64,000 bases of DNA, taken from positions 1 to 64,000 of the forward strand of contig CAJYXJ010000039.1 in NCBI GenBank assembly GCA_913778085.1, given 5' to 3'. The stretch is from an uncultured Chryseobacterium sp. (GTDB lineage Bacteria; Bacteroidota; Bacteroidia; Flavobacteriales; Weeksellaceae). The position numbers and the translations under genes were made by a program. The notes beneath the pieces were generated by a model that worked only from the letters and a program-made list of their open reading frames with translations, searched no databases and was not told the origin of the DNA. This document shows, in pieces, positions 1 through 8,433 of this stretch (position 1 is the first letter of the stretch; each line of letters opens with the position of its first letter).

Positions 1-107
1 TTCTCAATATTCTCTCCGCTTTAGCTGCTTATTCCTTCTTTGATAAAAAACCTTCTATTAACACCAATTCCGACATTATTGATGAAGATAGATTGATTGC
101 TGCTTAA
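1..107 (+). CDS. C-terminal end of an unidentified protein (partial)
   Basis: An open frame enters from the left edge and stops with TAA at 105-107. It gives about 34 residues, ending in IIDEDRLIAA. I do not recognise the family. It converges on, and by two bases overlaps, the stop codon of the truncated epimerase on the other strand. Because the epimerase loses its remaining two-thirds exactly here, this frame may be the 3' end of an inserted gene such as a transposase. That is inference only; the visible part is too short to prove it is coding. Confidence 0.4.
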   Translation, partial: LNILSALAAYSFFDKKPSINTNSDIIDEDRLIAA

Positions 108-469
108 GCCGAACTCACGTTATTTAACTCAGCAAAACTTTTATTTTCAAGCTTTCCGAAGAGATCCCAATATGCGCAATCCAATGCGGAAAGTAAAAAA
201 GGATGAAGAGACAGACCCAGCAGAAACCTGAAAAATTCCTTTGGCGGGACAATTTCCTGGTTTTCGATCCGATGCTGAATTTTCTTTAACGATAAAATAA
301 ATTGAGGTAGGTCTATTTTATAGTAATCTATTGCTATACATTCACCGTAGCCGGAACAATTGTTATGCTGTAATTCTATCAACAGGGCCTCTCTTCTGTC
401 ATAGTTTCCATAAGCAATGGAGAATGTTTCTTTTAACCTGAGCTGTTTTATTTCAAACCGTAATTTCAT
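104..469 (-). pseudogene. Truncated dipeptide (L-Ala-D/L-Glu) epimerase, N-terminal fragment
   Basis: The 121 residues match the N-terminal capping domain of enolase-superfamily dipeptide epimerases. They start with a KLRFEIKQLRLKETFSIAYG-type strand, include the YGECIAI segment, and end in the SALDCAYWDLFGKLENKSFAELN helix region. Family members are usually 320-340 residues, and their catalytic lysines and metal-binding acidic residues lie in the barrel domain, which is absent here. None of the three minus-strand frames of 1-104 restores it, so this is not a simple frameshift. The likely cause is an insertion or rearrangement near position 105-120. It starts 24 bases after the TPR gene and may be the last cistron of the RNA-repair operon. 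An inactive remnant is the best call. Confidence 0.7.
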
Positions 470-493
470 TATTAAATGTATAAAAAAGGAGAC

Positions 494-1009
494 TTATTCC
501 GCCTCCTTCTTCTTTTTAATTTTACTTTTTTTAGACATTTTGGATTTAACGAATTTCCTGCGGGCTTTTATGCTGTTCAGACTGCATTCGGTAAAACAGT
601 ATTTCTCCGCTTCCGTAAGAAACTTTAGGGCATTGGCCAGGCTTCCTCTTTTTTCGGAAAGCATCGACCGGTAGAGCCAAAGCGTCGCTTTATCAATCCC
701 TTTGATTTTCAGTGAATAACTGATCAGCTTTTCCGCTTCGTGCAAGTCTTCGTTATTCAGGAGGCAGATAATATAATACTGAGGCGTATTGACGTTGGTT
801 ACATCATACTGCATGGCTTCTTCAAAATAATGCTTTGCCTGCTCGTAATTGCAGAGCATCTCGCTGTAAATTCTTCCCATCAGGCAAAGCGCATCGGCAT
901 CTTCAGGATCATAAGAGAGCGCATAATTCAAAGCTTCCATACAATCCGGCAGATTGTACGGATAATGGTCCAGCGCTTCAAAATAATATTTACTTTTAGT
1001 TAAGGTCAT
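494..1009 (-). CDS. TPR-repeat protein, last intact gene of the RtcB-PrfH operon
   Basis: This 171-residue protein carries tetratricopeptide-like helical pairs over roughly residues 20-140; examples are DADALCLMGRIYSEM and YEQAKHYFEEAMQYD. It ends in a very basic tail of Lys and Ser (about residues 150-171). There is no signal peptide, so it should be cytosolic. The start ATG overlaps the end of prfH by 14 bases, which indicates translational coupling. TPR proteins scaffold protein contacts; given its neighbours, it might bind PrfH, RtcB or a damaged ribosome, with the basic tail touching RNA. That role is inference. I know of no characterised member of this specific family. Confidence 0.8.
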   Translation of the reverse strand: MTLTKSKYYFEALDHYPYNLPDCMEALNYALSYDPEDADALCLMGRIYSEMLCNYEQAKHYFEEAMQYDVTNVNTPQYYIICLLNNEDLHEAEKLISYSLKIKGIDKATLWLYRSMLSEKRGSLANALKFLTEAEKYCFTECSLNSIKARRKFVKSKMSKKSKIKKKKEAE

Positions 1010-1694
1010 TTCTATAATTTTTTAGTTCGTTTTTCAGGTGATTTCTTTGTTTCTTAAAAGACTTTTCCTGATAATTCTTTTTAAAATCGGTTCCGGAGAA
1101 TATTCTTACCGGGTTTCCGCGCTGTACATTCAGATGGTTGTTCCACCTTTCCTGCATTCTTTTCTGCAGCTGTATTATATTCTGCTCCAGGACTTTTGCT
1201 TTTAACCGTTCCACCGAAAGCTTTTTATTTTCAAGCTGCGAACGGGAGTCCTGTACGAAAACACTTTGCCCGGTCGGGATATGCGTTGCCCGCACGGCCG
1301 TATTTACCTTATTCACATTCTGGCCGCCGCTTCCCTGGCTTCTGACGGTCTGAAACTGGATATCTTTTTCATGAAAGCTGGCTTTCTGCAGGCCTTCCAG
1401 CTCGAAGATCCCGATAAACCAGTTGCTCCGTTTATGCAGTTTCCGGAAGGTGCTTTTACCTGTCCAGCAGATCGTCCCCAGCCAGGATCCTAAGAAATCA
1501 TCCAGGTCTTTTGATTTCAAAAGAAGGGTGACGGATTTCAGCGTCAGGTTTTCATCCCCGTTTTCACGATGGATGATTTCGTATGGGATGCTGTTGTTTT
1601 TTATTTCTTCAAGGAAAATTTTCAGCACTTTGGCGACGACCCACTGGCATTCCAAAGGTCCTTTTCCTGCGGTTATTTGGATGAGTTTTTCCAT
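996..1694 (-). CDS. prfH: Peptide chain release factor homologue PrfH
   Basis: A 232-residue class I release factor relative. The peptidyl-hydrolysis motif GGQ is at about residues 123-125, inside [18 protein letters not shown]. The standard RF1/RF2 codon-reading domain with its PxT or SPF tripeptide is missing, and the N-terminal 100 residues are of the PrfH type. Known PrfH proteins release peptides from ribosomes stalled by cleavage in the 16S decoding centre, after which RtcB reseals the rRNA. The same operon encodes RtcB, which fits that model closely. The gene overlaps the zinc-ribbon gene by 22 bases upstream and the TPR gene by 14 bases downstream. A full-length RF1 is separately present at 14868-15953, so this is not the housekeeping factor. 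Confidence 0.93.
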   Translation of the reverse strand: MEKLIQITAGKGPLECQWVVAKVLKIFLEEIKNNSIPYEIIHRENGDENLTLKSVTLLLKSKDLDDFLGSWLGTICWTGKSTFRKLHKRSNWFIGIFELEGLQKASFHEKDIQFQTVRSQGSGGQNVNKVNTAVRATHIPTGQSVFVQDSRSQLENKKLSVERLKAKVLEQNIIQLQKRMQERWNNHLNVQRGNPVRIFSGTDFKKNYQEKSFKKQRNHLKNELKNYRNDLN

Positions 1695-2260
1695 TTCTGT
1701 AAAATTTTTAAAATGCCTTCTCTGTTTTTAGCTTCCTTAATAAAGGTTGGCAGTCTTTCTACCATATACATTCTGTAAGGAAGCCTTGTTCTCAGGCCGG
1801 AAGAAATATAATTTTCCATTTCCAGCAAATGTTCCGTATTTCTGGCCCAGAAGAGTTTTCCTTTGAAATCTTCCTGGAAATAATACGGACATCCGAAAAC
1901 CGGATCGTGGATCAGGCCCGCTTCTGTTGTATAAGAGTCTAAATATTTCTCTGTTTTAGGCTGAACCTGAAATGAAGCATCACATTCGTCGCATTGTATC
2001 ATGATACTTTTAGATTTTTCTTTTAATCTTCCCTGCTCATAACGGATCGGATGTGCACAGGCAGGACAGTGCAGCTTTATAAACGCTTTGTAGACCACCA
2101 GTTCATTTCCGTTTTTCTTTAAACCGCAATGCCGGCATTCCAGAGAAGCCAGCTTGTAATCATTTACGTTTTTCACAAGGGCATTTTCTCCGCAATTGGG
2201 GCAAACGACCAGAGCGGTATTATAATAGGAAGAATATTGTTGCTTATATCTTTTCTGCAT
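1673..2260 (-). CDS. Double zinc-ribbon protein of the RtcB-PrfH operon
   Basis: The protein has four CxxC knuckles. Counting from the ATG at 2260, they are C20/C23, C42/C45, C65/C68 and C90/C93, which form two consecutive zinc ribbons. The C-terminal 100 residues are of unknown fold and contain a GCPYYFQEDFKGKLFWARN segment. A GTG eight codons upstream (2284) would overlap the nucleotidyltransferase gene by 17 bases; I prefer the ATG, which leaves a 7-base gap. Zinc ribbons commonly bind RNA or ribosomal components. Its place between the nucleotidyltransferase and prfH suggests a role in recognising or holding damaged RNA, but no function is established to my knowledge. Confidence 0.8.
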   Translation of the reverse strand: MQKRYKQQYSSYYNTALVVCPNCGENALVKNVNDYKLASLECRHCGLKKNGNELVVYKAFIKLHCPACAHPIRYEQGRLKEKSKSIMIQCDECDASFQVQPKTEKYLDSYTTEAGLIHDPVFGCPYYFQEDFKGKLFWARNTEHLLEMENYISSGLRTRLPYRMYMVERLPTFIKEAKNREGILKILQKWKNSSK

Positions 2261-2267
2261 TTCTTTA

Positions 2268-2813
2268 TTATTTCGGTATTTCACTTAATTTCGGGTGGCC
2301 GACCGGATCTATTCCTTTTTCCAACAGTTCTTTTGCAGCAGTCACCGCCCAGCATTTGTCGCTGGAATGGATATTTCTGTAAAATGAAAGAAGGACCGGC
2401 GGCCTTACTACGGTAAATCCGTTGGTTTCAATCGTTTCCAGATCATCTTTTTCAAAGAAATCAATCGTGATCCTGTGAGATTTTCCGTTTTCCATTTCTA
2501 CTGTTTTCTCATATCTCCGGAAATTTTCTTCGCTCGGCAGATGATCGTATCTGGTCCAGACTTTCTGAAAACCTTCCTGCTGAAGAATTATTACGACTTC
2601 TGTCACATTTTCTTTTTGTACAAATACATCAATATCCTTGTGGTCATGCGCGTGCTTGTATTCCATATGTCCTGCTTCGGACATAAAGTGCCATGCCCAG
2701 CCGCCCGAAACAATGACTTTCCGTTTTAATTTTTCTAAAATATCGAGTCCGTACCGGATTCTGAATTCCGGCCAGACTTCACCGTATCTTTTTATGTTGT
2801 GTGGTGCTCCCAT
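2268..2813 (-). CDS. Nucleotidyltransferase-fold protein of the RtcB-PrfH operon
   Basis: This 181-residue protein shows the core of the DNA polymerase beta-type nucleotidyltransferase fold. A VIVSGGWAWHF glycine turn is followed by the metal-binding pair in HKDIDVFV, with a third acidic residue in RITIDFF. This pattern resembles small stand-alone and LinA-like nucleotidyltransferases. It is cytosolic, with no signal peptide. In an operon with an RNA ligase and a ribosome-rescue factor, it could add or restore nucleotides at broken RNA 3' ends. Modifying a protein or small molecule cannot be excluded. The gene is 73 bp downstream of rtcB, separated by a perfect palindrome. Confidence 0.8.
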   Translation of the reverse strand: MGAPHNIKRYGEVWPEFRIRYGLDILEKLKRKVIVSGGWAWHFMSEAGHMEYKHAHDHKDIDVFVQKENVTEVVIILQQEGFQKVWTRYDHLPSEENFRRYEKTVEMENGKSHRITIDFFEKDDLETIETNGFTVVRPPVLLSFYRNIHSSDKCWAVTAAKELLEKGIDPVGHPKLSEIPK

Positions 2814-2832
2814 TTTTTATTTTTGTTTAAAT

Positions 2833-2865
2833 AAACCTCATAGGTTTTAAAAACCTATGAGGTTT
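2833..2865. repeat. 33-bp perfect palindrome inside the RNA-repair operon
   Basis: Two 16-base arms (2833-2848 and 2850-2865, beginning AAACCTCATAGG) are exact inverted copies around one central base. It lies in the only sizeable gap of the operon, between rtcB and the nucleotidyltransferase gene. It has short A/T runs at the arm ends but no clear U-tract, so it looks more like a REP-type palindrome than a classical terminator. It could cause partial termination or stabilise the rtcB transcript. Confidence 0.75.
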
Positions 2866-2885
2866 GAAGGCGTTACATCACCCGT

Positions 2886-4277
2886 TTACTTATCCATCCT
2901 TACCATCCTCGGCTGGAAGGTTCCCAGGATATCAACCAGTTCGCTCTGCGCATTCATCACTTCGTTGATGTCTTTATAAGCCATCGGTGCTTCCTCCGCA
3001 TTGCCGCCTATGAGCGTAACATTTTTGAGCTTTAATTCTTTTTTGATGTCGTTCTGGGTAAAAAGATTCCGGCATTCCCCTCTGGAATGGGCTCTTCCGG
3101 CACCATGCGATGCCGAGTTCAGGGAATCCGGGTTTCCTTTTCCGCGGACGATAAAGCCTTTGGCGGTCATGGATCCGGGAATCATTCCCAGCTCATTTTC
3201 ATTGGCCGGCGTTGCGCCTTTCCGGTGGACGATCACTTCTCTGCCGTTGTGGATTTCTTTCCAGGCAAAATTGTGATGGTTTTCGATTCTGGCTTTTACC
3301 CTTCCGCCCACGGCTTTTACCAGCCTGCGGTGGATATCGTCGTGACAGGCGGCAGCATAATCCCCCGCCAGATTCATCGCCGTCCAGTATTCCAGGCCGA
3401 GGTGGGAGCTGAGGTCCAGCCAGGCAAACTGCTGTGCCTCTTTCGGCAGCGGGCATTGGTCCACGGCCATCCTGGAATAATACTGGGCGATCTCTGCTCC
3501 GAGTCCCCGGGAGCCGCTGTGTGAAAGGATTCCCAGGTAGCTTCCTTTCGGAAGCCCGATCTGCGAATCTTCCTCTGTGATTTCCACTTCACCGAATTCT
3601 ACGAAATGGTTTCCGCCGCCGGAACTTCCCATCTGCCTGATGGCTTTTCCTTTAAGCCTCCTCAACAGCGGAATCATGTCGAAAGTATCCCGGTCGAAAA
3701 TCTCATGGTCGACAGGGGATTTATGGGTTTCATACATCCCAAACTTGGTATGCTCGGCAAGCGCTTTTTCGTATTTGTCTCTGGCACCGTCCAGATAGGA
3801 TACCGGGGTATCGAGGATGCTGAGGCTCATTCTGCATCCGATGTCCATCCCGACACCATACGGAATGACTGCATTTTCTACTGCAAGCACCCCACCGATC
3901 GGAAGTCCGTACCCGCTGTGTGCATCGGGCATCAGCGCGCCCTGTACGGAGACGGGCAGCTTCAGTGCGGTATACAGCTGGTTTTTCGCCTCATCCGAAA
4001 TGTTGTTTCCGAAAACCTGAAACGCTGCCCGCTGGGTATTGAGCATTCTCTTTTCCGTTTTTCGGGAGGAAAGCAGGGCTTCCGCGATTTGTCCGAAAGT
4101 AAGATCTTTCTCAAAATTCTCCGGGCTGATCAGGATTTCCTTTAGAAGGGATTTTACGTGATGAATGTTCTTGGTTGCAAAATTCCTTTTCATAACTTCC
4201 AGTGCAATGTTGACGCTCTGGTTGTTCGGATATCCCAGTTTTAATATATCTTTTCCTTTTAGTTTTAAATTTCCCAT
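2886..4277 (-). CDS. rtcB: RNA-splicing ligase RtcB
   Basis: RtcB joins RNA 2',3'-cyclic phosphate (or 3'-phosphate) ends to 5'-OH ends, using GTP and Mn2+. All landmark residues are visible: the metal cysteine in GMDIGCRMS, the GGGNHFVEFG and SHSGSRGLG histidines, HHNFAWKE, and the guanylylated histidine in HRKGATPANENELGM. The ATG at 4277 gives 463 residues beginning MGNLKLKGKD, the usual RtcB start. An ATG at 4310 would add 11 residues and overlap the upstream gene. Co-occurrence with prfH marks it as the RtcB2 type that repairs cleaved 16S rRNA. No archease, RtcA or RtcR gene is nearby. Confidence 0.95.
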   Translation of the reverse strand: MGNLKLKGKDILKLGYPNNQSVNIALEVMKRNFATKNIHHVKSLLKEILISPENFEKDLTFGQIAEALLSSRKTEKRMLNTQRAAFQVFGNNISDEAKNQLYTALKLPVSVQGALMPDAHSGYGLPIGGVLAVENAVIPYGVGMDIGCRMSLSILDTPVSYLDGARDKYEKALAEHTKFGMYETHKSPVDHEIFDRDTFDMIPLLRRLKGKAIRQMGSSGGGNHFVEFGEVEITEEDSQIGLPKGSYLGILSHSGSRGLGAEIAQYYSRMAVDQCPLPKEAQQFAWLDLSSHLGLEYWTAMNLAGDYAAACHDDIHRRLVKAVGGRVKARIENHHNFAWKEIHNGREVIVHRKGATPANENELGMIPGSMTAKGFIVRGKGNPDSLNSASHGAGRAHSRGECRNLFTQNDIKKELKLKNVTLIGGNAEEAPMAYKDINEVMNAQSELVDILGTFQPRMVRMDK

Positions 4278-4287
4278 TGTTTTATTT

Positions 4288-5037
4288 TTAAATTCTGAGG
4301 ATGTTTTCATCCTCTAGCAGGTCTGCAACCGCTGTTGCAGAAATTGTGTAGTGAAAGGCTTTCAGGCTCTTCATCCGATCGCATATGTATTTCTTTTTCC
4401 ATGGACCGGATTTTCCATAAATGGTTTTATGGATGATTCCCTGAACTTTATACCGGTTTAAAAAAGAATCGGTTTCGTCGATTTCTTTTTCCAGATCGGA
4501 TTGCAGTGGTTTGTAGTGGGTAATGATGTTTGGTTTTACTCTTAACACAAACCGCCCTGGTTCAGTAAATTCATAATAAACTTTACGTGACCTTCTGATC
4601 GGACAGTAGTGGTCTTTCATAACGAAATACTGTTTTTCTTTTTCAGTAAGTCCGAACTTCGGGTTATCCCATTCCCAGGGATAGATATTGGCAACACGCT
4701 GTTCTTTGGGAACATAAATTTTCCTTCCGCGTTTCCGTTTTTTCTTAAGGAACTTCCGGTCGGGGGAATACATTTCCGTATTGATCTTTTTCAGGAGTTC
4801 TCCGAAGAATACGCCGTCTTTCGATCTTTTTACGTCATCCCTTACGACAAAGAACCTGACAAAGCCCCTCTGATAAGGTTTTTCCAAAGGAACCAACGGA
4901 ATATTCCGTCTCATTTCCCAAAGCTGATCGCTGTATTTATATTTTTTCCTGATCTGTTTCTCTACATCTCTTTTTATGATTCTTTTTCTGCTTCTCAGGT
5001 TTCTCAGTCTGAAAAACAGGAGGTTGTCTTTTTCCAT
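4288..5037 (-). CDS. Unknown highly basic protein, first gene of the RtcB-PrfH operon
   Basis: I do not recognise this 249-residue protein. It is strongly Lys/Arg-rich throughout, for example RNLRSRKRIIKRDVEKQIRK near the start and KFLKKKRKRGRKIYVPKEQR near residue 100. It is also rich in Tyr, Phe and Trp (YPWEWDNPKFG). It has no signal peptide, membrane helix or Cys pairs. The middle contains RFVLRVKPNIITHYKP. Composition and context suggest an RNA- or ribosome-binding protein, perhaps a damage sensor or substrate receptor for RtcB. The end of the gene is 10 bases before the preferred rtcB start, so the two are co-transcribed. Upstream, 250 bp separate it from the candidate small RNA terminator. 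Confidence 0.8.
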   Translation of the reverse strand: MEKDNLLFFRLRNLRSRKRIIKRDVEKQIRKKYKYSDQLWEMRRNIPLVPLEKPYQRGFVRFFVVRDDVKRSKDGVFFGELLKKINTEMYSPDRKFLKKKRKRGRKIYVPKEQRVANIYPWEWDNPKFGLTEKEKQYFVMKDHYCPIRRSRKVYYEFTEPGRFVLRVKPNIITHYKPLQSDLEKEIDETDSFLNRYKVQGIIHKTIYGKSGPWKKKYICDRMKSLKAFHYTISATAVADLLEDENILRI

Positions 5038-5139
5038 GAATGTTCTGCTCTTAACGCGACATACAAATTGTATATCACCTGATATTCTTAACCTTACCTG
5101 CCTGTAAGACCTGTAAGATGATTTTACGGAACGGCATTA

Positions 5140-5212
5140 TTAGCCCCGATAGCAGTGGAAATCCTTTTTTGAAAAAAAAGATTGCAACGGATAGCGGGAA
5201 ACAGCTCCTGAA
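5140..5212 (+). repeat. Long A/T-cored hairpin element, probably a dispersed intergenic repeat
   Basis: An imperfect hairpin with a left arm starting TTAGCCCCGATAGCAGTGG and a right arm ending CAACGGATAGCGGG. The core is AATCCTTTTTT paired with AAAAAAAAGATT. The sequence style matches intergenic elements I associate with flavobacterial genomes, but only one copy is in this window. It sits 100 bp upstream of the RNA-repair operon. It could be a transcript end, a small RNA or a non-autonomous repeat. Confidence 0.5.
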
Positions 5213-5286
5213 AACTGTCTGAAATTGTTCCTTTATTGTTGAAAAAAAGAGTCCGGGAAAACCTGTAATAAGTTTGAAATATTGCG

Positions 5287-5459
5287 CAATAAAAAACCCG
5301 GAATCTTACGACTCCGGGTGGTTATATTTCATTATACTGTAATTCTAAGAATGTACCCAACCACGAAGCCCTGCCTTTGCAAAAGGCAATCCTGCTGTAG
5401 AAATATGTACTTTACTGAACATTTGCTTCGTTATTTTAAAGGGTTAAAAACTGATTTGA
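5287..5459 (-). ncRNA. Candidate structured small RNA with intrinsic terminator
   Basis: On the minus strand a Bacteroidota -7 element (TAATTTTG, 5464-5471) is followed by about 170 bases without a convincing gene. They include a perfect TGCCTTT-TGC-AAAGGCA hairpin (5376-5392), a closing ACGAAG/CTTCGT pair around it, and an outer GTAC/GTAC pairing. The region ends in a strong CCCGGA/TCCGGG stem followed by TTTTTT. Promoter, folded body and terminator together support an independent RNA. Flavobacterial 6S-like RNA and other flavobacterial RNA motifs are possible identities; I cannot tell which. The RNA-repair operon begins 250 bp further downstream, so a leader or attenuator role is also possible. 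Confidence 0.5.
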
Positions 5460-5463
5460 GCTA

Positions 5464-5471
5464 CAAAATTA
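5464..5471 (-). promoter_or_regulatory. Bacteroidota -7 element (TAATTTTG) for the candidate small RNA
   Basis: Matches TAnnTTTG exactly on the minus strand and would place the transcript start near 5458-5460. No clear -33 TTTG was found, because the upstream DNA is a T-run. Confidence 0.45.
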
Positions 5472-5694
5472 ATTTTTTTTTTGAAACTGCCAAAAAATTT
5501 AAAATAAAATTTCAATTTATACTAAAATTCAAAAAAAGGTATAATATTTGACAATCTAATTCTATACATATGCACGTATAATGATTAAAGCTGTATTTCT
5601 GTAAATAATTTTGTTTACCATAAAGATATGTTTTAAGCTTATTTATGCTGCTTTTAAATGATCTATACCCTAATTTTTCTTTTTAATAATTAAT

Positions 5695-5727
5695 GAAAAC
5701 CGGCTGTTTCTTCTGAAACAGCCGGTT
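5695..5727 (-). terminator. Intrinsic terminator after the stress-protein gene
   Basis: A perfect 13-bp stem (5698-5710 with 5715-5727) has a TTCT loop and is followed on the minus strand by TTTTCATT. The plus-strand side is also T-rich, so it may work in both directions. Confidence 0.7.
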
Positions 5728-5754
5728 TGTTTTTATATATTTTTAATATCTGAA

Positions 5755-6255
5755 TTAGTCTTTTGACCCGAGATCGTCCATCGGATCATCCATTCCTCTG
5801 ATGACATTGGAATGGTATACTCTTTCCGAACCAAGGAAATACAGGTTGTTTTTCGCTTTGGCAATAATCCCATTGTATTGTTCTTCAGTCATGCCTTCCG
5901 GTATATCGGTTTGGTGTTCTGAAGGTTTTCTGTATACTTCCAGTGCCCCGTTTCTGTTTAAAACGGAGTTTGCCGCTGCTGCCTGCTCCATATCATCCGC
6001 ATAAACCACGATGTTATGCTTTCCAACACTGTGTTTACGGTAAGCCTCCAGCATTTCCGCATCGTGGGCAAAGGTATATTCGAAAAATCCTTTGGTTTGC
6101 TCATCTTCCTGATAGTTATCTGCTGTTGCTCCGCTTTCTACATTCGATTTTGAAACAACAATGTTTGCTTCATCGATGCCGTTTTCTTTTAATTGTCTTT
6201 TGATTTCCTCGGTGTCTGCCGTTACCGGAAATACTGAAACTACTGTATAAGCCAT
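5755..6255 (-). CDS. Putative general stress protein (17M/YflT-like)
   Basis: A cytosolic protein of 166 residues from the ATG at 6255 (MAYTVVSVFPV); an upstream start at 6282 would add nine less typical residues. It begins with a beta strand followed by DTEEIKRQLKENGIDEANIVV, the ferredoxin-like opening seen in general stress protein 17M relatives. It contains HNIVVYADDMEQAAAANSVLNRNGA, where short-chain position changes are scored in that family. The acidic C-terminus ends in MDDPMDDLGSKD. The role is probably a stress-induced accessory protein; no enzyme motif is visible. It is a single-gene unit flanked by its own terminator. Confidence 0.65.
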   Translation of the reverse strand: MAYTVVSVFPVTADTEEIKRQLKENGIDEANIVVSKSNVESGATADNYQEDEQTKGFFEYTFAHDAEMLEAYRKHSVGKHNIVVYADDMEQAAAANSVLNRNGALEVYRKPSEHQTDIPEGMTEEQYNGIIAKAKNNLYFLGSERVYHSNVIRGMDDPMDDLGSKD

Positions 6256-6315
6256 AATGAAAATTTTCAATAGGTTATACAAAAGCTGTGCAATTTATTT
6301 CGTTTTAATTTTAAT

Positions 6316-8433
6316 TTAATCTAAAAACCTTTCGAGAATGTCGACGGCACATTTCGGGAGATTGGTCCCCGGCCCAAAGATGAAATCGGCTCCGTTGGCA
6401 TACAAAAATTCATAATCCTGTTGGGGAATAACGCCGCCCACGACAATGGTAATGTCATCGGCACCCAGCTTTTTCAGTTCCCCTACTACCTGAGGAACCA
6501 GTGTTTTATGACCGGCTGCCAGAGAGGAAACTCCTAAAATGTGAATATCATTTTCCACCGCCTGTCTGGCGACTTCTTCCGGGGTCTGGAATAAGGGCGC
6601 CACATCCACATCGAATCCCATGTCGGCAAACGCGGTAGCGACAACTTTGGCACCCCGGTCGTGACCGTCCTGTCCCATTTTGGCCACCATGATCCTTGGC
6701 CGGCGGCCTTCTTCTTCCTCAAATTTCTGGGTAAGGTTAAGGGCTTTTTCAAAATACTCGTTTTTTCCTGCGTTCATGGCGTATACTCCTGAAATGGTTC
6801 TGATGTTGGCTTTGTATCTTCCGAAACTTTCTTCCATGGCATCGCTCATTTCCCCGAGGGTTACCCGTCTGCGGGCGGCTTCGATGCATAAAGCGAGCAG
6901 GTTTCCCTGTCCCGTTTTGGCAGATTCCCTTATTTTATTCAGAATTTCCTCAACGGCTGAAGCATTTCTTTCCGCTTTGATGGTATTGAGTCTTTCGATC
7001 TGCTTTCTGCGCACCTCGGTGTTATCGATATCCAGGATTTCAATCGGGTCCTGTTTCAGCTCTGACCGGAATGAGTTTACCCCAATGATGAATTCTTCGC
7101 CGCTGTCGATTTTAGCCTGTTTTCTGGCTGCTGCTTCCTCAATTCTCATTTTCGGGATCCCGGCTTCGATGGCTTTGGTCATTCCGCCTTCCTGCTCTAC
7201 CTCATCGATGTATTTCATGGCTTCTTCGATCATCTGCTGGGTGAGGCTTTCTATAAGGTTGCTTCCTCCCATCGGATCTACGACATCGCAGATCCCGCTT
7301 TCCTGCTGGAGGATAATCTGCGTATTTCGTGCAATTTTTGCCGAGTAGTCTGTAGGAAGCGCGATCGCTTCATCCAGTGCATTGGTATGAAGGGACTGGG
7401 TTCCGCCCAATGCGGACGATAATGCTTCAATTGCTGTCCGGGTAATATTGTTAAACGGTTCCTGCTCCGTAAGAGACCATCCTGAAGTCTGGGAATGGGT
7501 TCTCAGCGCCAAGGATTTCGGGTTTTGCGGATTAAACTGCTTCAGCAAGTTGGCCCAGATGTATCTTGCGGCCCGCATTTTTGCGATTTCCATAAAATGG
7601 TTCATCCCGATCGCCCAGAAAAAGGAAAGCCTCGGAGCAAACTCGTCGACCTTCATTCCGGCTTTTATTCCTGTTCTCACATATTCCAGTCCGTCTGCCA
7701 GCGTATAAGCCATTTCCAATACCGGTGTTGCTCCGGCTTCCTGCATGTGATAGCCTGAAATGGAGATGGAATTAAACTTCGGTATATTCTGAGCAGTATA
7801 TTCAAAAATATCGGCAATGATTTTCATGGAAGGTGCCGGCGGATAAATGTAGGTATTGCGTACCATGAATTCCTTTAAAATATCATTCTGGATGGTTCCC
7901 GACAGCAATTCCTGGGACACGCCCTGCTCTTCCGCTGCTACGATATAAAAAGAAAGAATCGGCAGCACTGCCCCGTTCATGGTCATCGAAACCGAGATCT
8001 GGTCCAACGGGATTTCATTGAATAAAATTTTCATGTCTTCCACAGAGTCGATGGCCACACCGGCTTTCCCGACATCCCCAACTACTCTTGCATGGTCGGA
8101 ATCATAGCCCCGGTGGGTGGCCAGGTCAAAAGCTACGGAAAGTCCTTTCTGTCCTGCTGCCAGATTCCTTCGGTAGAAAGCATTGGATTCCTCAGCCGTT
8201 GAAAAACCGGCATACTGACGGATAGTCCACGGTTTCTGAACATACATGGTGGAATAAGGTCCTCTAAGGTACGGTTCGATTCCCGGGGAAGTCTGTGTGA
8301 GTTCCGGATTTTTAACATCTTCCGCTTTATAAGAGGATTTCAATGACAGTCCATCTTTTTCAAACGGATAGATTTCCGTTTGCTTTTCAGTTATATTAAA
8401 TTGAGGAGTTTTATTCTGAACTTCCCTTCTCAT
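6316..8433 (-). CDS. scpA: Methylmalonyl-CoA mutase, large (catalytic) subunit
   Basis: This 705-residue adenosylcobalamin enzyme interconverts succinyl-CoA and methylmalonyl-CoA in propionate and branched-chain/odd-chain metabolism. The N-terminal TIM barrel carries the substrate-channel segments [20 protein letters not shown] and [14 protein letters not shown]. The C-terminal Rossmann-like domain holds the cobalamin-binding DxHxxG signature in [11 protein letters not shown] (about residue 590), followed by GVSSLAAGH and the GGVIPQQD loop. Length and motifs are complete. In many relatives the small subunit gene (mutA/scpB-type) sits directly upstream; here the upstream gene is an unrelated secreted protease, so the partner must lie elsewhere if this enzyme is heterodimeric. 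Confidence 0.96.

What the first reader, a model, noticed from the sequence alone, without database searches (positions are those of the whole stretch)
494..5037. Six-gene RtcB-PrfH cassette with three or four undescribed partners
Seen: six adjacent minus-strand genes, four of the five junctions overlapping or within about 10 bases. They encode an unknown basic protein, RtcB, a nucleotidyltransferase, a double zinc-ribbon protein, PrfH and a TPR protein. Known: RtcB-PrfH pairs rescue ribosomes whose 16S decoding centre was cut by a toxin, with PrfH releasing the peptide and RtcB resealing the rRNA. Inference: the four extra proteins extend this into a multi-part system for damage recognition, end repair and 30S handling.
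Basis: partly seen in the sequence, partly recalled or inferred. Interest (0 to 1): 0.75.

Follow-up and report, generated by a model that had tools for sequence, protein, structure and literature searches.

The report
Ribosome-repair operon with stall-sensing leader
A six-gene bacterial operon that probably releases and re-seals damaged ribosomes is real and mostly already described, but just upstream of it lies a conserved short reading frame and RNA switch that probably turns the repair genes on when ribosomes get stuck.

Summary
The six genes are there as described: basic protein, RtcB, nucleotidyltransferase, double zinc ribbon, PrfH, TPR. The partners are not undescribed: Burroughs & Aravind 2019 (PMC6514570, passages) list all four accessory kinds beside RFH-RtcB. 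Linkage holds. Of 296 Bacteroidota genomes, PrfH passes its cut-off in 22; the basic gene occurs in 9 and the nucleotidyltransferase in 7, all among those 22 and near the pair. Gene order is fixed; accessories come and go.

It precedes 88 of 91 loci examined; a profile scan of the 296 genomes gives strong matches in 20, all among the 22. Segments covary between distant loci. P. aeruginosa PA5471.1, before armZ (RtcB-like) and prfH, is a tested precedent; my searches found no Bacteroidota report. Likely logic: a ribosome held at the leader's start prevents termination and switches repair on. No wet test was possible; accessory roles remain inference.

The parts
5464..5493 (-). Promoter-like site of the operon: TTG (5491-5493), 19 nt spacer, TAATTTTG (5464-5471), matching the Bacteroidota consensus TTG-N17-23-TAnnTTTG (consensus recalled)
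   Evidence: within 120 nt upstream of the leader, TAnnTTTG is present in 74 of 74 Weeksellaceae-type leaders and the two-part match in 62 of 74; in Flavobacterium-type leaders only 7 of 13 and 3 of 13, and in L120 at another position.
5425..5431 (-). Segment 1 (ACGAAGC), just 5' of the leader start codon; pairs with segment 2
   Evidence: CGAAG starts 7-10 nt before the start codon in 87 of 87 leaders; native 1:2 duplex mean -10.8 / -11.0 kcal/mol in the two groups against -7.6 / -7.2 with partners swapped between groups.
5345..5422 (-). Leader ORF, 25 codons, MFSKVHISTAGLPFAKAGLRGWVHS*
   Evidence: intact ORF with LRG near its end in 87 of 91 loci, 54 distinct peptides; among 334 close (non-independent) pairs, differences by codon position 307/376/1049; 55% of single changes synonymous against 25% expected.
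5359..5369 (-). Segment 2 (GCTTCGTGGTT), the Leu-Arg-Gly codons of the leader; pairs with segment 1 or segment 3
   Evidence: CTTCGnGG in 87 of 87 leaders.
5312..5324 (-). Segment 3 (TAACCACCCGGAG); pairs with segment 2 (antiterminator) or segment 4 (terminator)
   Evidence: antiterminator pairs form in 98.2% of 340 cells (34 sequences); 12 cells with changes on both sides, shuffles 3.0 +/- 1.2.
5291..5319 (-). Intrinsic terminator: segment 3 with segment 4 (TTCCGGGT) and a T run
   Evidence: 10-bp stem 5319-5296 with T tail, second longest of 12 terminator-like stems in 1-6400 (shuffles mean 7.2); stem in the minimum-energy fold of 87 of 87 free full-length leaders.
4288..5037 (-). Basic protein (249 aa, pI 10.0, charge about +29); member of a family seen next to rtcB
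   Evidence: no Pfam or NCBIfam match over cut-off and no PADLOC match; AlphaFold2 mean pLDDT 77.9, no confident PDB match.
2886..4277 (-). RtcB RNA ligase (463 aa from the likely start at 4277; the ORF runs to 4310)
   Evidence: DIGC, GNHF, HSGSRG, HHNF and HGAGR motifs present; aligns to T. thermophilus TTHA1785 and P. horikoshii RtcB.
2268..2813 (-). Minimal nucleotidyltransferase (181 aa): GG, DxD and third Asp conserved
1673..2260 (-). Double zinc-ribbon protein (four CxxC) with basic C-terminal domain (195 aa from the likely start at 2260; the ORF runs to 2284)
996..1694 (-). PrfH, peptide release factor H (GGQ at residues 123-125)
   Evidence: TIGR03072 212.1 bits; closest PDB sequence 9mor (335.8 bits).
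494..1009 (-). TPR protein (171 aa)
   Evidence: follows PrfH in 64 of 67 named loci and 18 of 20 phylum-sample loci.

Best explanation
This is a Flavobacteriales version of the RtcB-PrfH ribosome rescue and repair operon, with optional accessory genes, controlled by a leader-peptide transcription attenuator that senses ribosomes. Shown by sequence: a promoter-like site, a 25-codon ORF, and three mutually exclusive helices: 1:2 (segment 1 beside the leader's start codon with the Leu-Arg-Gly codons), 2:3 (antiterminator) and 3:4 (terminator). Inferred: with no ribosome, 1:2 forms and the terminator stops transcription; a ribosome that finishes the leader covers segment 2, and the terminator again forms; a ribosome held at the start or first codons covers segment 1, so 2:3 forms before segment 4 is made and RNA polymerase reads into the cassette. 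So the operon should be on when ribosomes can initiate but not elongate, the state expected after a decoding-centre cut (recalled). PrfH then frees the peptide and RtcB re-seals the rRNA (inferred from the families). The basic and zinc-ribbon proteins most likely bind ribosomal RNA, the TPR protein acts as scaffold, and the nucleotidyltransferase extends an RNA end or modifies another target (weakest inference). My estimates: attenuator 0.85; cassette does rescue plus RNA repair 0.75; trigger is early stalling 0.6.
For: Attenuator: leader ORF in 87 of 91 loci plus a diverged copy in L134. It is intact in all 85 loci (of 90 searched) that an ORF-blind nucleotide search had found. A profile gives strong matches in 20 of 296 genomes, all among the 22 with PrfH, about 1.5-3.6 kb upstream of it on the same contig and strand; 6 of these 20 had no member in the profile. 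In the genus 98 of 99 genomes have the leader and 95 of 99 have PrfH; the one leaderless genome also lacks PrfH. It moves with the cassette: Flavobacterium-type cassettes with other neighbours carry it. Covariation: GGTTT:AAACC:GGGT (Weeksellaceae), GGCTT:AAGCC:GGGC (Flavobacterium type), GACTT:AAGTC:GGAT (L134), so segments 2, 3 and 4 change together; 12 double-change cells against 3.0 in shuffles, 0 of 500 reaching it; swapping partners between groups weakens all three helices. Folding: in 87 of 87, 2:3 forms before segment 4 exists when the start is occupied; with the stop occupied 2:3 forms in 1 of 87 and the terminator in 87 of 87. Precedent: in P. aeruginosa PA5471.1 attenuates armZ (RtcB-like), which adjoins prfH. 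Enzymes look active: GGQ in 85 of 85 PrfH, ligase motifs DxxC, GNHF and HGAGR in 87 of 87 RtcB ORFs of 400 aa or more.
Against: No expression data. At equilibrium, with the start codon occupied, the finished transcript still prefers the terminator in 77 of 87, so the model needs kinetic trapping. Before segment 4 exists, even the ribosome-free fold prefers 2:3 (87 of 87; 1:2 in only 3), so 1:2 must form first and hold. The ribosome footprints used are assumed. Segment 2 lies inside codons, so pairing and coding conservation are partly confounded; the number of pairs with double changes (2) and of further pair types (5) are not above shuffles (247 and 214 of 500). 14 of the 20 strong genome matches belong to genomes whose leaders trained the profile. 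Two PrfH loci outside the order (L131, L132) and the Emticicia locus L087 lack the leader; three genus genomes have the leader but no PrfH at E 1e-45. The RtcB is below the TIGR03073 cut-off of the operon's named subfamily (139.6 against 271.8). Accessory genes are often absent, so none is essential to the system.
Confidence: 0.72

Rival explanations
1. The upstream element is an independent small RNA or small-protein gene that merely sits beside the cassette and does not control it.
For: It has its own promoter-like site and terminator; about 250 nt separate it from the basic gene, with a Flavo-1 RNA match between them on the other strand. Three genus genomes have it without a PrfH match at E 1e-45.
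Against: In the phylum sample strong matches occur only in PrfH genomes (20 of 20), among different neighbours and upstream of whichever gene is first, basic or rtcB. The terminator arm also pairs with the ORF's last codons and covaries with them, which an sRNA with a plain terminator would not need.
Confidence: 0.1
2. The leader works as an arrest peptide: its conserved C-terminus stalls ribosomes in response to a particular drug or factor, rather than reporting early-stalled or damaged ribosomes.
For: The C-terminal LRG motif is nearly invariant (the search required it, L134 is an exception) and the ORF is under purifying selection.
Against: Stalling at the LRG codons would cover segment 2 and favour termination (stop-codon footprint). 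The invariant codons are explained by pairing: L134 has LRD with compensating changes in segments 3 and 4. The remaining residues vary (54 distinct peptides).
Confidence: 0.12
3. The operon is mainly a response to ribosome-binding antibiotics: the nucleotidyltransferase is an ANT/Lnu-like drug-modifying enzyme and the leader a drug-sensing attenuator.
For: The nearest solved folds are ANT(2'')-Ia and LnuA; PF10706 just passes its cut-off (21.4 against 21); PA5471.1 responds to ribosome-targeting drugs.
Confidence: 0.15
4. The accessory genes are passengers of a mobile or defence-like locus with no part in ribosome repair.
For: They come and go; the basic gene is split in 4 of 67 named loci; the ZnR family also exists elsewhere (11 of its 16 genomes hold only a copy that is not beside PrfH); in L087 the basic gene lies 2 kb from an RtcB with no PrfH seen.
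Against: Fixed slots: basic before RtcB, nucleotidyltransferase and ZnR between RtcB and PrfH, TPR after PrfH; no other order in any of 91 loci. In the 296-genome sample basic and nucleotidyltransferase occur only near the pair. Nucleotidyltransferase alignment mean identity 78% over 22 chosen members.
Confidence: 0.15

Closest known systems
RFH/PrfH-RtcB neighbourhoods with accessory genes (Burroughs & Aravind 2019, PMC6514570; passages seen)
   Same: Same core pair and, by description, the same four accessory kinds: TPR, Pol-beta nucleotidyltransferase, one or two zinc ribbons with a basic C-terminus, and a highly charged helical protein.
   Different: Their supplement could not be opened, so identity is by description. 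The passages seen mention no leader ORF, attenuator or fixed slots, nor the two rarer genes found here (162 and about 206 aa).
E. coli RtcB2-PrfH operon, protects against colicin E3 (PMC9223846; abstract and passages)
   Same: Release factor H plus an RtcB ligase in one operon, with GGQ and ligase motifs intact here.
   Different: Two genes only; this RtcB falls below the TIGR03073 cut-off. The words leader and terminator do not occur in that paper's main text.
P. aeruginosa PA5471.1-armZ(PA5471)-prfH(PA5470) (PMC12057347 section 8 read and passages; PMC13041342 passages)
   Same: Leader ORF, RNA segments 3 and 4 form a terminator after complete translation, stalling gives readthrough; armZ is RtcB-like and adjoins prfH.
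   Different: Different phylum; ArmZ's studied role is anti-repressor of MexZ. Sequence relation of the two leaders was not tested.
ANT(2'')-Ia, LnuA and MenT nucleotidyltransferases (PDB 4wqk, 4fo1, 8an5 and others)
   Different: About 14-16% identity over the aligned residues for ANT, LnuA and MenT1; conserved stretches of this family (MGAPHN, ENFRRYEK, NIHSSDKCWAV) not compared with theirs one by one; substrate unknown.

Membership tests
RtcB-PrfH ribosome rescue/repair operon | PrfH release factor over the curated cut-off, GGQ present | tested here: met
   TIGR03072 212.1 bits against 166.65; GGQ at residues 123-125, and in 85 of 85 PrfH ORFs of 190-299 aa.
RtcB-PrfH ribosome rescue/repair operon | RtcB ligase gene beside prfH with metal- and GMP-binding residues | tested here: met
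   PF01139 E 3.2e-79; motifs present and aligned to P. horikoshii RtcB; which residues bind metal and GMP is recalled.
TIGR03073 (release_rtcB, the named RtcB subfamily of this operon) | Score over the curated cut-off of 271.8 bits | tested here: not met
   139.6 bits. So it is an RtcB beside PrfH, not a TIGR03073 member.
RtcB-PrfH ribosome rescue/repair operon | Releases peptide from cut ribosomes and re-ligates 16S rRNA | not testable with these tools
   No biochemistry possible; the abstract of PMC9223846 reports it for the E. coli proteins (passage).
Burroughs-Aravind RFH-RtcB accessory set | TPR, Pol-beta nucleotidyltransferase, ZnR with basic C-terminus, highly charged helical protein | tested here: met
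   All four kinds present by description only. Sequence identity with their proteins could not be checked.
Leader-peptide transcription attenuator | Short ORF upstream of the operon, conserved as a reading frame | tested here: met
   87 of 91 loci; third-position excess and synonymous excess. Translation itself not shown.
Leader-peptide transcription attenuator | Intrinsic terminator and a mutually exclusive antiterminator overlapping the ORF | tested here: met
   By sequence and folding only.
Leader-peptide transcription attenuator | Readthrough rises when ribosomes stall on the leader | not testable with these tools
   Needs reporter or RNA-seq; reported for PA5471.1.
Lincosamide nucleotidyltransferase (NCBIfam Lnu models) | Score over the curated cut-off | tested here: not met
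   Best 20.1 bits against 300.
RlaP RNA-ligase-associated nucleotidyltransferase | RlaP family membership | not tested
   PMC6514570 says the RFH-associated enzyme does not appear specifically related to RlaP (passage).

The most novel reading that the evidence does not exclude
Damaged ribosomes switch on their own repair: a ribosome cut in the decoding centre still initiates on the leader ORF but cannot elongate, sits over segment 1, allows the antiterminator and so induces the whole cassette. The same logic evolved or persisted in Flavobacteriales and Pseudomonas (PA5471.1), and perhaps in E. coli, where a 15-codon ORF with a strong Shine-Dalgarno precedes rtcB2-prfH, so leader-ORF sensing is a general feature of RtcB-PrfH systems.
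Probability: 0.35. Interest if true: 0.8.

Novelty: new variant of a known kind. Interest (0 to 1): 0.58.

Why it matters
What turns RtcB-PrfH repair on did not complete in the passages seen here for the E. coli system. A conserved, cassette-bound attenuator gives a concrete answer to test with a single reporter, and links these operons to the P. aeruginosa armZ leader, which has been studied for efflux control although armZ and its neighbour are an RtcB-like gene and prfH. It also suggests that the ribosome itself is the damage sensor, so that no separate recognition protein is needed for induction. The fixed-slot, mix-and-match accessory genes, two of them not in the list seen in print, show which partners to test first.

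Tried and rejected
Regular expression too strict: one search looked for the leader peptide with AGLP/RGW-type motifs and found it in few loci, which suggested a non-coding RNA. Rejected after alignment A5 and the broader searches.

Known RNA family for the leader: Rfam gives none above threshold; the L20_leader match (22.3 bits against 58.7) is below its cut-off.

Plasmid carriage: no plasmid match for the basic protein or the nucleotidyltransferase. One distant match (42%) for the 162-aa gene on an Alkaliphilus plasmid, with no rtcB or prfH in the listed features, which are incomplete for plasmids. PADLOC gave weak matches only, best 7.9e-5 for the zinc ribbon and 0.013 for RtcB.

ZnR as a cassette-specific family: rejected; 5 of its 16 genomes hold the cassette copy (261-342 bits) and 11 hold other, lower-scoring copies (51-183 bits) that are not beside PrfH; their neighbours were looked at by eye only.

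Selection and dropping, stated: the 67 named loci were found through the basic gene, so its presence there is by selection; the 20 phylum loci were found through PrfH (22 found; the other two are the window's genome and G002, not refetched). The search required LRG near the end. Model R1 and the pair count used 34 of the 87 leaders, chosen for diversity; 14 of the 20 strong genome matches come from genomes in that training set, 6 do not (G002, G320, G277, G038, G344, G144), and that scan used stricter filters that lose weak matches. L067 was left out of both groups in the swap test; L134 was added by hand. Alignments A1-A4 used 15, 27, 16 and 22 chosen members; members with stops or frameshifts were left out. 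In one search ORFs shorter than 400 aa (RtcB), 190 aa (PrfH), 170 aa (nucleotidyltransferase) and 180 aa (ZnR), and PrfH-profile ORFs of 300 aa or more, were dropped; the motif H[ST]GSRG was in 85 of 87 RtcB.

E. coli: the 15-codon ORF upstream of rtcB2-prfH has hairpins but no clear terminator was established; left as a lead.

Not in print: the claim rests on searches, 134 of an open-access library; Tian et al. 2022 (recalled) and Burroughs & Aravind 2016 are not held. Supplements could not be opened, including the table of 64 structured 5' regions of a flavobacterial transcriptome paper (PMC9723704, passages).
Full report
Observation. The six minus-strand genes are present at the stated coordinates and their identities hold: RtcB (PF01139, E 3.2e-79), PrfH (TIGR03072, 212.1 bits against 166.65), a TPR protein, a four-CxxC zinc-ribbon protein, a weakly matched nucleotidyltransferase and a basic protein with no useful family match. 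Start codons of RtcB and the zinc-ribbon protein are probably 4277 and 2260, by comparison with relatives. Four of five junctions are then overlaps or gaps of at most 10 nt.

Host. The nearest named relatives of the basic gene are Chryseobacterium and a Weeksellaceae MAG, so the window is inferred to be Chryseobacterium-like. The window is the first 64,000 bases of a 75,928-base contig.

Linkage. In an even sample of 296 Bacteroidota genomes PrfH passes its cut-off in 22 (all 296 have some match at E 0.001, the weaker ones listed lying in open frames of about 340-470 aa, so probably ordinary release factors). The basic protein is found in 9 of 296 and the nucleotidyltransferase in 7 of 296, always in genomes among those 22 and near the pair (hypergeometric p 1e-11 and 5e-9, without correction for shared ancestry). 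The zinc-ribbon family is broader: 16 of 296, of which 5 hold the cassette copy. In a closer sample the basic gene is in 25 of 60 genomes, all 25 among the 37 of the genus. Of 67 named loci that carry the basic gene, 66 have RtcB next downstream (in 4 of them after a 162-aa gene) and PrfH after it; the exception is L087, where RtcB is 2 kb away and no PrfH was seen in the held stretch. Across those 67, the nucleotidyltransferase is in 54, the zinc ribbon in 12, TPR in 64, and all six kinds in 10, counting split genes. In the 20 PrfH loci fetched from the phylum sample RtcB is adjacent in 20, TPR in 18, basic in 7, nucleotidyltransferase in 6, zinc ribbon in 4. The slots never change order: basic, (162 aa), RtcB, (nucleotidyltransferase), (206 aa), (zinc ribbon), PrfH, TPR.

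Two further accessory genes. A 162-aa gene between basic and RtcB (4 of 67 named loci) and a 206-209-aa gene between the nucleotidyltransferase and zinc ribbon or PrfH (4 of 67) appear in the same slots. In the genus each occurs in 2 of 99 genomes, each time in a cassette. Neither has a Pfam match over a cut-off.

Already described. Burroughs & Aravind 2019 state that RFH-RtcB neighbourhoods accrete a TPR gene, a Pol-beta nucleotidyltransferase, a protein of one or two zinc ribbons with a basic C-terminus, and a highly charged helical protein without detectable homologues, and propose scaffold, end repair and rRNA contact (passages). So the title's 'undescribed partners' does not stand.

The upstream element. 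Aligning regions upstream of the basic gene revealed a conserved block ending in a terminator. An iterated nucleotide search found it in 85 of 90 cassette loci, including Flavobacterium-type loci among other neighbours and loci without the basic gene, where it precedes rtcB. An early, too strict test of the reading frame was wrong. The corrected search found an intact ORF of 25 codons (Weeksellaceae; 27 in L067) or 27-28 codons (Flavobacterium type) with LRG near its end in 87 of 91 loci, two of them with a GTG start (L129, L130), and in all 85 of the loci found without regard to the ORF. L134 has a diverged copy ending LRDFIHK. L087, L131 and L132 have none.

It looks coding: among 334 close, non-independent pairs of the 53 distinct 78-nt ORFs, differences fall 307/376/1049 on codon positions and 55% of single changes are synonymous against 25% expected. 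It is also structural: all 87 contain four segments. Segment 1, starting 7-10 nt before the start codon, pairs with segment 2, the Leu-Arg-Gly codons; segment 2 pairs with segment 3; segment 3 pairs with segment 4 to make a terminator with a T run. Segments 2, 3 and 4 change together between groups: GGTTT, AAACC, GGGT; GGCTT, AAGCC, GGGC; and in L134 GACTT, AAGTC, GGAT. On 34 sequences the 2:3 helix pairs in 98.2% of cells, sliding drops this to at most 62.9%, and 12 cells show double changes against 3.0 in shuffles; the number of pairs with double changes and of further pair types are not above shuffles. Native partners beat partners swapped between groups for all three helices, least so for Weeksellaceae segment 2 with Flavobacterium segment 3 (-15.6 against -13.8 kcal/mol).

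Folding states (assumed footprints). In free full-length leaders 1:2 forms in 85 of 87 and the terminator in 87 of 87; before segment 4 exists the free fold is 2:3 in 87 of 87. With a ribosome on the stop codon 2:3 forms in 1 of 87 before segment 4 and the terminator in 87 of 87; with a ribosome on the start codon 2:3 forms in 87 of 87 before segment 4, but the finished transcript at equilibrium prefers the terminator in 77 of 87. The switch therefore needs the kinetic order usual for attenuators.

Specificity. A profile of the leader gives strong matches (30 bits or more) in 20 of 296 genomes, all among the 22 PrfH genomes and about 1.5-3.6 kb upstream of PrfH on its strand; all other listed matches are 22.5 bits or less. 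Fourteen of the 20 are genomes whose leaders trained the profile; six are not, and none of the 274 genomes without PrfH gives a strong match. The two PrfH genomes without it are outside the order (L131, L132). In the genus 98 of 99 genomes have it and 95 of 99 have PrfH; G391 lacks both; G003, G354 and G376 have the leader but no PrfH at E <= 1e-45.

Precedent. In P. aeruginosa the leader PA5471.1 controls armZ, called an RtcB-like RNA ligase, which adjoins prfH (PA5470): complete translation gives a terminator between segments 3 and 4, and stalling gives readthrough (section 8 and passages of PMC12057347; passages of PMC13041342). Searches for a Bacteroidota counterpart in print found none; a flavobacterial transcriptome paper reports leader-peptide attenuation before amino-acid biosynthesis operons in the passage seen, and its table of 64 structured 5' regions was not seen.

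Mechanism. The ribosome is the sensor: held early, it leaves segment 2 free for segment 3 and the cassette is transcribed; finishing or absent, it lets the terminator form. This state, initiation without elongation, is what a decoding-centre cut is expected to cause (recalled), and the genes switched on are those that release the peptide and re-seal RNA. The step from early stalling to rRNA damage as the natural trigger is inference.

Verdict. Genes confirmed; linkage confirmed; partners previously described in kind; per-gene roles untested; a leader-peptide attenuator bound to the cassette is the new part.

Noticed in passing
L198 3740-3787 (E. coli K-12) and L199 1551-1598: A 15-codon ORF (MTNPLSMTLCRPFQD*) with a strong Shine-Dalgarno lies between yafP and rtcB2-prfH, with hairpins overlapping its end; possibly a third leader of this kind.
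   Followed up: partly
L026, L028, L029, L037 (162 aa) and L028, L032, L037, L076 (206-209 aa): Two rare extra cassette genes in fixed slots, each in 2 of 99 genus genomes and there only in cassettes.
   Followed up: partly
window 5138-5205, + strand: Flavo-1 RNA (RF01705, 72.6 bits) between the attenuator and the basic gene, on the opposite strand.
   Followed up: no
window 2833-2865: Perfect inverted repeat AAACCTCATAGGTTTT/AAAACCTATGAGGTTT in the RtcB-nucleotidyltransferase gap; a near-identical one lies near the second rtcB of the genome, L022 about 853-885.
   Followed up: no
window 1-469: A 121-aa ORF (104-469) resembles the start of a 330-aa protein encoded downstream of TPR in L135; it looks like a decayed or frameshifted gene (by eye).
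   Followed up: no
L022 (G000:C16): A second, distant RtcB (30% identity) in the same genome with a tRNA-like stretch and a further gene downstream; a similar downstream gene also follows the L134 cassette (by eye).
   Followed up: no
L134 11583-12275 and 13033-13704, minus strand: Two diverged basic-protein copies flank the leader of this cassette; a cysteine-rich 190-aa ORF sits between its RtcB and nucleotidyltransferase.
   Followed up: partly
L169 8749-9357: An unlinked zinc-ribbon homologue starts 8 nt after an ffh-like gene on the same strand (gene name by eye).
   Followed up: no
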